A DNA stretch of 64,000 nucleotides from assembly GCF_001592085.1 (NCBI RefSeq), contig NZ_BCWD01000001.1, positions 1 through 64,000 on the forward strand, given 5' to 3'. Shown here piece by piece: positions 45,325-63,088 of the stretch (the first letter of the stretch is position 1; each line of letters opens with the position of its first letter). The position numbers and the translations under genes are program-made. The notes under the pieces are model-generated. The model made no database searches. It had not been told where the DNA came from and saw only the letters and a program-made list of their open reading frames with translations. The stretch is from Levilactobacillus senmaizukei DSM 21775 = NBRC 103853. GTDB lineage: Bacteria > Bacillota > Bacilli > Lactobacillales > Lactobacillaceae.

Positions 45325-45470
45325 ATGGTGGACAACGTCCGCCGAAGATGTGGCCTTGACGGGCTGGAACGCCGTGGGCACAGCTTTGAGCCAAGGAACG
45401 TCTCAAAGACTGGCCTTTCTCTAGGCCTGGTAAGCCCACCGGCCCAAGAGAAACGACACGGTTGAGCCCC
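45325..45470 (+). repeat. structured repeat copy A, in the 3' region of etfA
   Basis: A diverged member of the same family as copies B and C, in the opposite orientation. It keeps the order: hairpin GGAC-AAC-GTCC, GGCTGGAACG box (45362-45371), then hairpin CTTTGAG (45384-45390) with loop CCAAGGAACGT and CTCAAAG (45402-45408). In B and C the last stem is TTGGAAG/CTTCCAA around loop CCAAAAAGCGGT or CCAAAGGGCGGT. The stem differs but still pairs, and the loop start is conserved. A further stem with TCTCT and AGAGA ends closes the element. Confidence 0.6.
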
Positions 45471-45521
45471 GGCCACACCCTCGGCTCACCATTAGTCGCT
45501 GTCATGACTAAAGAGCAAACG

Positions 45522-45545
45522 AATAAAACAATAAAACAATAAAAC
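45522..45545 (+). repeat. three tandem 8-bp repeats
   Basis: AATAAAAC occurs three times in succession (45522, 45530, 45538) just before the terminator hairpin. Probably replication slippage. Confidence 0.7.
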
Positions 45546-45548
45546 GTA

Positions 45549-45592
45549 AAAATACACCTAGCGGATTACATCCGTTAGGTGTATTTATTTTG
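45549..45592. terminator. bidirectional terminator between etfA and pckA
   Basis: A 16-bp stem, AAATACACCTAGCGGA paired with TCCGTTAGGTGTATTT (one G-U pair), with T-rich tracts both ways. The etfA transcript would include copy A, and the pckA transcript copies C and B, before ending here. Confidence 0.85.
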
Positions 45593-45750
45593 TCTTAATT
45601 GATTAAATTGCGGAGCTAAGGGCAGTCACTGCTGTCCACCCTTAAGACACCACTCACGATCGTATAATTCCAGATCACCACTCGCCTCAAGTCACTTAAC
45701 CATTCCGATCAGAATGACAATTCTAAGCGACCAGAGGTGAGCGAGGCTCA

Positions 45751-45882
45751 GTGGTGTAATTGTCTTAGCGAGTGGGTTCCTCGCTTAGGCAACGCCGGCT
45801 TGGAAGACCGCTTTTTGGCTTCCAAACGAGCGCACCACGTTCCAGCCTCTAACCCACCGCCGGGAGCGGCCAATGAACACTA
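45751..45882 (-). repeat. structured repeat copy B
   Basis: A 132-bp unit repeated at exactly 171 bp distance as copy C. Across the 106-bp core (45777-45882) the two differ at seven positions. On the minus strand it folds as hairpin GCCG-CTCC-CGGC (45870-45859), the GGCTGGAACG box, hairpin TTGGAAG/CTTCCAA (45825-45800) and hairpin AGCGAG-GAACCCA-CTCGCT. Two of the seven differences from C are a compensating pair in the first hairpin. Confidence 0.8.
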
Positions 45883-45921
45883 GCCTTCCTGACAAAATCA
45901 GAATGCCAAGTCAAAGCAGCC

Positions 45922-46053
45922 GTGGTGAAAATGCCTTGGTGAGTAGATTCCTCGCTTAGGCAACGCCGGCTTGGAAGACCGCCCTTTGGCTTCCAAACGA
46001 GCGCACCACGTTCCAGCCTCTAGCCCATCGTCGGGAGCGACCAATGACCACTA
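45922..46053 (-). repeat. structured repeat copy C, directly after pckA
   Basis: The second direct copy, beginning 12 bases after the pckA stop on the same strand. Its first hairpin is GTCG-CTCC-CGAC (46041-46030), where copy B has GCCG/CGGC: a C-G pair replaced by T-A with pairing kept. The TTGGAAG/CTTCCAA hairpin and GGCTGGAACG box are identical to B. The third hairpin is weaker than in B. Confidence 0.8.
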
Positions 46054-62992: not shown

Positions 62993-63065
62993 GTCGCAAT
63001 AGCTCAGCTGGATAGAGCAACGGTCTTCTAAACCGTAGGTCGAGGGTTCGAATCTCTCTTGCGAC
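62993..63065 (+). tRNA. tRNA-Arg (anticodon UCU)
   Basis: A 73-base tRNA. The acceptor stem GTCGCAA pairs with TTGCGAC; the D arm is AGCTCAGCTGGATAGAGC; the anticodon stem ACGGT/ACCGT holds loop CTTCTAA, giving anticodon TCT (reads AGA); the T arm contains GGTTCGAATC. CCA is not encoded. It has a full-consensus promoter and its own terminator, so it is a single-gene unit. Confidence 0.95.
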
Positions 63066-63088
63066 ATCAATTTTAATCGTTCCAAACA

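What the first reader, a model, noticed from the sequence alone, without database searches (positions are those of the whole stretch)
45325..46053. Three copies of a structured element with compensatory base changes in the etfA and pckA 3' regions
Copies B and C (132 bp, 171-bp spacing) differ at only seven core positions, and two of these are paired: GCCG/CGGC versus GTCG/CGAC in a hairpin with the same CTCC loop. The diverged, inverted copy A keeps the GGCTGGAACG box and a second hairpin whose stem sequence is fully changed (CTTTGAG/CTCAAAG versus TTGGAAG/CTTCCAA) while its loop start CCAA is kept. Selection therefore seems to act on RNA shape. B and C follow pckA on its own strand, and A follows etfA on its strand, so all lie in 3' untranslated regions before a shared terminator. 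This could be an undescribed RNA family or a structured mobile repeat.
Basis: seen in the sequence. Interest (0 to 1): 0.7.

Follow-up and report, generated by a model that had tools for sequence, protein, structure and literature searches.

The report
Folded mobile repeats in lactobacilli
The three repeats are worn copies of a large family of small non-coding jumping DNA elements in lactobacilli whose arms keep one elaborate folded shape while their sequence changes almost completely, probably as folded DNA rather than as an RNA gene.

Summary
Copies A, B and C are real and share one fold. A covariance model built without any sequence from this genome finds exactly these three places in the 64-kb window (E 1.6e-29, 2e-25, 1.5e-14). 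The fold is an outer stem carrying two hairpins, with double-sided changes at 40 of 50 pairs. There is no Rfam match. The family is dispersed: 40 matches in this genome, 123 of 397 sampled genomes and 15 of 40 genera of its family, and only this genome among 398 of the class. Neighbouring copies face each other: 37 convergent pairs, 0 divergent. In Lactiplantibacillus songbeiensis such pairs form 154-406-bp elements with terminal inverted repeats and 7-9-bp target duplications (30 of 42 against 0.6 expected). One empty site carries a single 9-bp copy. G.U pairs are no commoner than A.C mismatches, and sense and antisense placements are about equal. A 3'-UTR RNA is therefore less likely than a MITE-like element folding as DNA. 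No transposase was found, and target duplications were not shown in the window's own genus.

The parts
45337..45490 (+). copy A of the arm domain (outer stem P1, P2, hairpins P3 and P4)
   Evidence: R2 match 45337-45489, 105.8 bits, E 1.6e-29; fold
45361..45371 (+). GGGCTGGAACG box of copy A (5' side of P1/P2 and internal loop); 3' partner GTTGAGCCC at 45461-45469
45383..45414 (+). hairpin P3 of copy A (GCTTTGAG-CCAA...GTCTCAAAG)
45415..45455 (+). hairpin P4 of copy A
45723..45872 (-). copy B of the arm domain
   Evidence: R2 match, 92.0 bits, E 2e-25
45794..45831 (-). hairpin P3 of copy B (TTTGGAAG-CCAAAAAGCGGT-CTTCCAA)
45760..45792 (-). hairpin P4 of copy B (CCTAAGCGAG...CTCGCTAAG)
45893..46043 (-). 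copy C of the arm domain, tandem to B (171-bp spacing), lacking the 3' half of the outer stem
   Evidence: R2 match 45893-46040, 55.4 bits, E 1.5e-14
45550..45586 (.). 17-bp inverted repeat with flanking T/A runs: terminator-like, between A and B; not part of the family
   Evidence: (I1)
   Evidence: next to pckA in 11 relatives

Best explanation
A, B and C are old, worn arms of MITE-like mobile elements: small, non-coding DNA elements found in part of the Lactobacillaceae. Each arm is a ~150-165-nt domain: a long outer stem (P1/P2) interrupted by a conserved CTGGAACG/CTGAG internal loop and carrying two hairpins, P3 and P4 (P4 with a conserved A.A mismatch between two CTAAG strands). A complete element has two such arms in inverted, inward-facing orientation around a short spacer, bounded by terminal inverted repeats. 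It is inserted by a transposase acting in trans (inferred), leaving 7-9-bp target duplications; the duplications are shown for L. songbeiensis and inferred for the window's genus. The arms keep their shape because the element needs the folded DNA (hairpin or cruciform), most likely as a recognition or regulatory module for its own mobility; this last step is inference. The copies near pckA and etfA landed between convergent genes, where insertions probably do least harm (inference).
For: Fold: 31 of 32 pairs (136 copies, alignment fitted to the model) and 40 of 50 pairs (30 copies, MAFFT alignment not fitted to the structure) have changes on both sides; 0 of 500 shuffles reach the observed value on any of the five measures, and no slid control does. 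Independent detection in the window with R2. Dispersal: 40 matches in this genome, 133 in G023 (capped search). Inverted pairs: 37 convergent, 0 divergent, 4 tandem; 5' end towards the nearest gene in 105 of 118 named and 23 of 29 own copies. One repeat unit: 20 G023 pairs, chosen for their ~80-bp spacing, align over ~400 bp; flanks are unrelated except in one pair of duplicated loci. Mobility: 206 copies of the terminal repeat in the L. songbeiensis genome, 1 for the reversed control pattern; target duplications 30 of 42 against 0.56 expected; empty site with both 350-bp flanks at 90-91% and exactly one 9-bp copy. DNA rather than RNA: G.U 1.7%, A.C 2.6% of 5749 cells, ratio 0.64-0.80 at four weightings; 14 tRNAs of the fetched loci have 17 G.U of 296 cells; both strands of B fold alike as DNA. 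Convergent intergenic regions over-represented in named loci (25 of 81 against 60 of 380, p 0.0025).
Against: No transposase or autonomous relative was found: of 40 fetched stretches of G330, ORFs were listed for four (read by eye) and for the eight with a lone terminal repeat, of which 20 of 24 ORFs were scanned with Pfam without a transposase. Proteins around the copies form no specific recurrent family. No target duplications above control in the 19 G023 pairs tested, and none was tested for the window copies. The elements are richer in G+C than their flanks in 9 of 9 (one barely), unlike typical MITEs. No match in 72,556 plasmids (two queries) or 50,697 phages (one query), odd for an active mobile element. 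The convergent enrichment is not seen in the own genome (p 0.76). Short forms (154-327 bp) with target duplications lack parts of or a whole arm where folded, so complete arms may not be needed for mobility.
Confidence: 0.72

Rival explanations
1. The arm domain is a functional RNA (3'-UTR stabiliser, regulator or sRNA) that happens to be spread by a mobile element.
For: Strong covariation; A, B and C are sense in the 3' regions of etfA and pckA; [quoted passage not shown]
Against: G.U not favoured over A.C; sense and antisense placements about equal; presence at the etfA-pckA site varies between relatives. Transcription was not testable here.
Confidence: 0.13
2. The covariation is mostly mutational: imperfect DNA palindromes are corrected arm-to-arm by template switching during replication, so paired changes arise together without selection on shape. 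(This can be true together with the best explanation's mobility.)
For: Intermediates (G.U, A.C, other mismatches) are rare (6.2% together) while full exchanges G-C to C-G and A-T to T-A are common; P1 is hypervariable yet mostly paired.
Against: The internal loop CTGGAACG/CTGAG, the A.A mismatch of P4 and the bulges are conserved across genera rather than corrected, which points to selection.
Confidence: 0.3
3. The elements are moved as single strands by an HUH/Y1 transposase (IS200/IS605 or REP-RAYT type) that reads the hairpins.
For: Conserved hairpins at both ends; intergenic inverted pairs resemble REP pairs (BIMEs, recalled).
Against: Target duplications of 7-9 bp, which IS200/IS605-type insertion does not make (recalled); unit length 154-406 bp, not 20-40 bp.
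Confidence: 0.04
4. The repeats are host chromosome-organising sites, kept in the origin-proximal part of the chromosome.
For: In G023 the 133 listed copies leave a 788-kb gap around the GC-skew switch; the largest gap in 20,000 random placements of 82 clusters was 426 kb; own stretches carrying copies that could be mapped lie at 0.14-0.71 and 2.57 Mb of G023.
Against: Copies in G290 are spread along the chromosome; presence is patchy between genera; target duplications point to mobility.
Confidence: 0.06

Closest known systems
BOX and RUP repeats of Streptococcus pneumoniae (PMC3049150, passages seen)
   Same: Small, dispersed, intergenic, terminal inverted repeats and target duplications, tightly folded, over-represented between convergent genes, more than 100 copies each.
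   Different: BOX is modular (A, B, C); according to that paper the repeats occur less often in S. [quoted passage not shown] Here one fold spans 15 of 40 sampled genera and a unit has two inward-facing copies of a three-way-junction domain. Sequence and fold were not compared by a tool.
bcr1-bcr3 repeats of the Bacillus cereus group (PMC3446304 and PMC6542083, passages seen)
   Same: MITE-like dispersed intergenic repeats, mostly chromosomal, bcr1 with 11 to 130 copies, restricted to one bacterial group.
   Different: Mobility of the bcr repeats is tied to TTTAT motifs; here 7-9-bp variable target duplications and two-armed units. No sequence comparison was made.
QMITE2-type bacterial MITEs (PMC10969869, passages seen)
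   Same: Direct repeats of 7-9 bp, terminal inverted repeats, strong predicted fold of the whole element.
   Different: No conserved internal three-way-junction domain described in the passages seen; that review calls MITEs AT-rich, whereas these are GC-richer than their flanks.
REP/BIME elements with RAYT transposases
   Same: Intergenic palindromes in inverted pairs (pairing recalled).
   Different: REPs are 20-40 bp, in families tagged GTAG or CGTC (title and abstract of PMC3733652 in the listing); here the arm is ~150-165 nt and insertions carry target duplications.

Membership tests
MITE (miniature inverted-repeat transposable element) | small and non-coding | tested here: met
   154-406 bp in L. 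songbeiensis; longest ORF 54-69 aa in 9 of 9 checked; ~760 bp in G290 with no ORF over about 94 aa inside it in the three copies listed
MITE (miniature inverted-repeat transposable element) | terminal inverted repeats | tested here: met
   ACGCTTGGTGCTAGTT at both ends, 206 sites in one genome, control 1
MITE (miniature inverted-repeat transposable element) | target-site duplication and empty site | tested here: met
   30 of 42 against 0.56 expected; empty site L131. Not met in 19 G023 pairs, where copies may be older or the ends misjudged
MITE (miniature inverted-repeat transposable element) | mobilised by an identified transposase with matching ends | tested here: inconclusive
   none found in the stretches looked at
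MITE (miniature inverted-repeat transposable element) | AT-rich | tested here: not met
   47-51% GC against 39-47% in flanks, 9 elements; usual but not a defining trait
Rfam RNA families | score above a family's gathering threshold | tested here: not met
   only a tRNA in the window; nothing near a gathering score on the elements
cis-acting structured RNA (3'-UTR element) | wobble pairs tolerated on the transcribed strand | tested here: not met
   G.U/A.C ratio 0.64-0.80
cis-acting structured RNA (3'-UTR element) | fixed orientation relative to transcription | tested here: not met
   67 against 51, p 0.17
cis-acting structured RNA (3'-UTR element) | transcribed | not testable with these tools
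   no transcriptome
REP/BIME | 20-40-bp palindrome with tetranucleotide tag | tested here: not met
   size of the unit
REP/BIME | RAYT transposase in the genome | not tested
   no search made

The most novel reading that the evidence does not exclude
An ancient class of transposon end: a complex folded-DNA domain (three-way junction with conserved internal loop and A.A mismatch), kept by Watson-Crick-only covariation through many genera while its sequence turns over, and read as folded DNA by a transposase or host protein not yet identified.
Probability: 0.3. Interest if true: 0.82.

Novelty: new variant of a known kind. Interest (0 to 1): 0.6.

Why it matters
An element with up to more than a hundred copies per genome, present in about a third of the sampled genomes of a much-sequenced family of food and gut bacteria, was not found in Rfam or in my literature searches. 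It offers a natural test of whether DNA structure, not RNA, can drive textbook covariation: a warning for RNA discovery pipelines, which would call this a structured RNA family. If the fold is needed for mobility it would be a new kind of transposon end.

Tried and rejected
Rfam at gathering and permissive thresholds: nothing convincing on the elements. A gene partner: clustering 951 predicted proteins of the fetched loci gave only broad families, the largest looking by eye like ABC transporter ATPases. An autonomous element in L. songbeiensis: terminal repeats kilobases apart enclose genes that look ordinary by eye; 20 further stretches gave short elements or a lone end, and 20 of the 24 ORFs listed in the eight lone-end stretches have no transposase domain in Pfam. 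Plasmids and phages: no match; viral contigs: no exact match to the core pattern. Target duplications in G023: not above control. Literature: eight searches showed no description of this family in their listings; passages were read in PMC8632094, PMC2267715, PMC12306157, PMC2864571, PMC10969869, PMC3446304, PMC6542083 and PMC3049150 only, so 'not in print' is limited to those searches of open-licence papers. Rejected: a riboswitch or leader (sense and antisense placements about equal, varying presence), REP/RAYT (size, duplications), a fixed 3'-UTR function behind pckA (two of 11 relatives with the same gene pair lack copies).

Rows dropped before counts: one search used 146 of the 156 matches (ten short, edge-cut or weak ones left out; by their positions three of them would add convergent pairs and none a divergent one); searches used 34 and 31 of the own-genome matches; one search kept 192 of 207 aligned copies (length and flank limits), 187 distinct; one search used 36 of 37 pairs; one search used 19 of the 20 G023 pairs (L196 left out, flank duplicate of L195); one search used 42 of 47 after removing duplicates. 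Of the four stretches the last, a partial arm of L236, folded no better than its shuffles. The counts are limited by the number of candidates scored per genome, and searches used stricter filters.

Full report
WHAT WAS CLAIMED AND WHAT IS THERE. B and C are 132-nt direct repeats at 171-bp spacing, 89% identical, with 14 differences. A is inverted and diverged.

INDEPENDENT TEST. The first search with window DNA found seven further matches in the genome. Model R1, built from ten copies including A, B and C, therefore matches them by construction. Model R2 was built from 30 copies of other genomes only, in several genera (159 positions, 50 pairs). In the window it finds exactly A (E 1.6e-29), B (2e-25) and C (1.5e-14) and nothing else up to E 10. 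C lacks the 3' part of the outer stem.

THE FOLD. Outer stem P1 (about 16-19 pairs, hypervariable), internal loop CTGGAACG/CTGAG, P2, then hairpin P3 (with a conserved AGCC...GUC region) and hairpin P4 (two CTAAG strands facing each other with a conserved A.A mismatch). On the 136-copy alignment 31 of 32 pairs have changes on both sides, 767 double-changed cells against 192 +/- 15 in shuffles, covariation 0.470 against 0.131; slid controls reach at most 0.066. That alignment was fitted to the model. On a MAFFT alignment not fitted to the structure (A6) 40 of 50 pairs have double changes, 312 cells against 90 +/- 8, covariation 0.531 against 0.150, slid at most 0.131. Single positions run through all four Watson-Crick pairs (GC 60, TA 58, CG 51, AT 8 at one P3 pair).

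DISTRIBUTION. Own genome: 36 matches at E<=1 with R1, 40 at E<=0.01 with R2. Relatives: 22 of 23 other genomes of the same genus, 0 of 16 genomes of other families (R1). Family: 70 of 301 genomes, 13 of 40 genera with R1; 123 of 397 genomes, 15 of 40 genera with R2. Class: 1 of 398, the own genome (few candidates scored per genome, stricter filters). The window's own genus is probably Levilactobacillus (inference: a match of the same-genus genome G282 has the same score and positions as one in L083, L. tangyuanensis). No exact pattern match in viral contigs, no match in plasmids (two queries) or phages (one query).

ARCHITECTURE. Neighbouring copies less than 700 bp apart in named loci are convergent in 37 cases, divergent in none, tandem in 4. 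A copy's 5' end faces the nearest gene in 105 of 118 named and 23 of 29 own cases, whatever that gene's strand. In G023 20 pairs, chosen for their ~80-bp spacing, align as one ~400-bp unit: arm 1, a variable ~50-nt spacer, arm 2 of a different subtype. The left end CGCCTTACC is present in 20 of 20; the mirrored right end GGTAAGGC in 11 of 20. Flanks are unrelated except that L195 and L196 are duplicated loci. In the window A faces B/C in the same way, with a terminator-like inverted repeat between them; whether A and B/C were ever one unit cannot be told.

MOBILITY. In L. songbeiensis (G330) the terminal repeat ACGCTTGGTGCTAGTT occurs 206 times with up to 2 mismatches, the reversed control once. 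Elements of 154-406 bp carry target duplications: 30 of 42 score 4 or more against 0.56 expected from mismatched flanks, 13 of 42 score 7 or more (12 perfect, 7 to 9 bp; one 10 bp with a mismatch) against 0.0. The 396-bp element of L105 (duplication ACTTATTTC) has an empty site in L131 of L. dongliensis: both 350-bp flanks align at 90-91% and overlap by exactly 9 bp. That is one empty site; the other flank pairs compared found the site occupied (also in the near-identical genome G334). Whole elements fold at -154 to -204 kcal/mol in the five forms of 385 bp or more that were folded. In G290 the domain sits in a ~760-bp two-armed repeat; 20 copies were aligned around the arm and 10 compared over their length, with matching ends; no clear target duplications were seen there by eye. 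In G023 none rise above control, and none was tested for the window.

DNA OR RNA. A sense-strand RNA should tolerate G.U and purge A.C. Observed: G.U 1.7%, A.C 2.6% of 5749 cells at 31 pairs; ratio 0.64-0.80 at four weightings. In helices 2-4 of A6 the counts are 7 and 17 of 979, in P1 20 and 23 of 479. Fourteen tRNAs of the fetched loci: 17 G.U of 296 (their A.C count of 0 may be by construction). Among named loci 67 copies are sense 3' of a gene and 51 are not (p 0.17). pckA was found next to etfA in 11 relatives, with 211 bp to about 1 kb between them: G004 has a strong and a moderate copy there, eight have weaker or partial ones (E<=0.01), L223 and L226 none. Both strands of B fold alike as DNA. 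I therefore favour structure acting as DNA. Arm-to-arm correction of palindromes may contribute to the paired changes; it does not explain the conserved internal loop and mismatch.

HOW IT PROBABLY WORKS. Shown: a mobile, non-coding, two-armed element with terminal repeats and 7-9-bp duplications in one species, with an empty site in a sister species; one conserved fold through the family. Inferred: a transposase in trans, a DNA-level role of the fold in mobility or its control, and that the window copies are old insertions tolerated between convergent genes. Convergent regions are over-represented in named loci (25 of 81 against 60 of 380, p 0.0025) but not in the own genome (p 0.76). Searches for a mover in the fetched L. 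songbeiensis stretches failed.

NOVELTY. The kind (MITE-like folded repeats such as BOX, RUP, bcr1) is known (passages in PMC3049150, PMC3446304, PMC6542083). New as far as my eight literature searches and Rfam go: this family, its range through many genera, its two-armed three-way-junction design, and the Watson-Crick-only covariation.

Noticed in passing
G023:C1 (2.67 Mb, starts at a dnaA-like gene), 929,170-1,716,857: None of 133 listed copies (150 candidates scored) lies in this 788-kb stretch around the GC-skew switch (1.26-1.41 Mb); largest gap in 20,000 random placements was 426 kb.
   Followed up: partly
G000:C2 (144 kb): 22 of the 31 strong R1 copies of the own genome (E<=1.5e-11) lie on this one contig, which maps to 0.46-0.57 Mb of G023.
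   Followed up: partly
G290:C1, for example L309:3896-4652: A ~760-bp two-armed repeat without a long ORF, at least 20 copies, with ends near ATCATGATTAAAACGTGCC.
   Followed up: partly
L333, L335, L240, L247, L237 (G330): Shortened elements (154-327 bp), four of these five with perfect target duplications of 7 or 9 bp; in L247 and L237 the first arm has lost P3 and P4 but keeps its outer stem.
   Followed up: partly
L063:14350-14730 (G000:C2 about 104.35-104.73 kb): Apparently two tandem copies of a distantly related folded repeat (weak R1/R2 matches), possibly another branch of the family.
   Followed up: no
G022 and G266 (same genus as the window): No match (G022 with R1; G266 with R1 and R2) although relatives have dozens of copies: useful for a comparison of gene content to find the mover.
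   Followed up: no
window 62993-63066: tRNA gene, the only Rfam match of the window.
   Followed up: no
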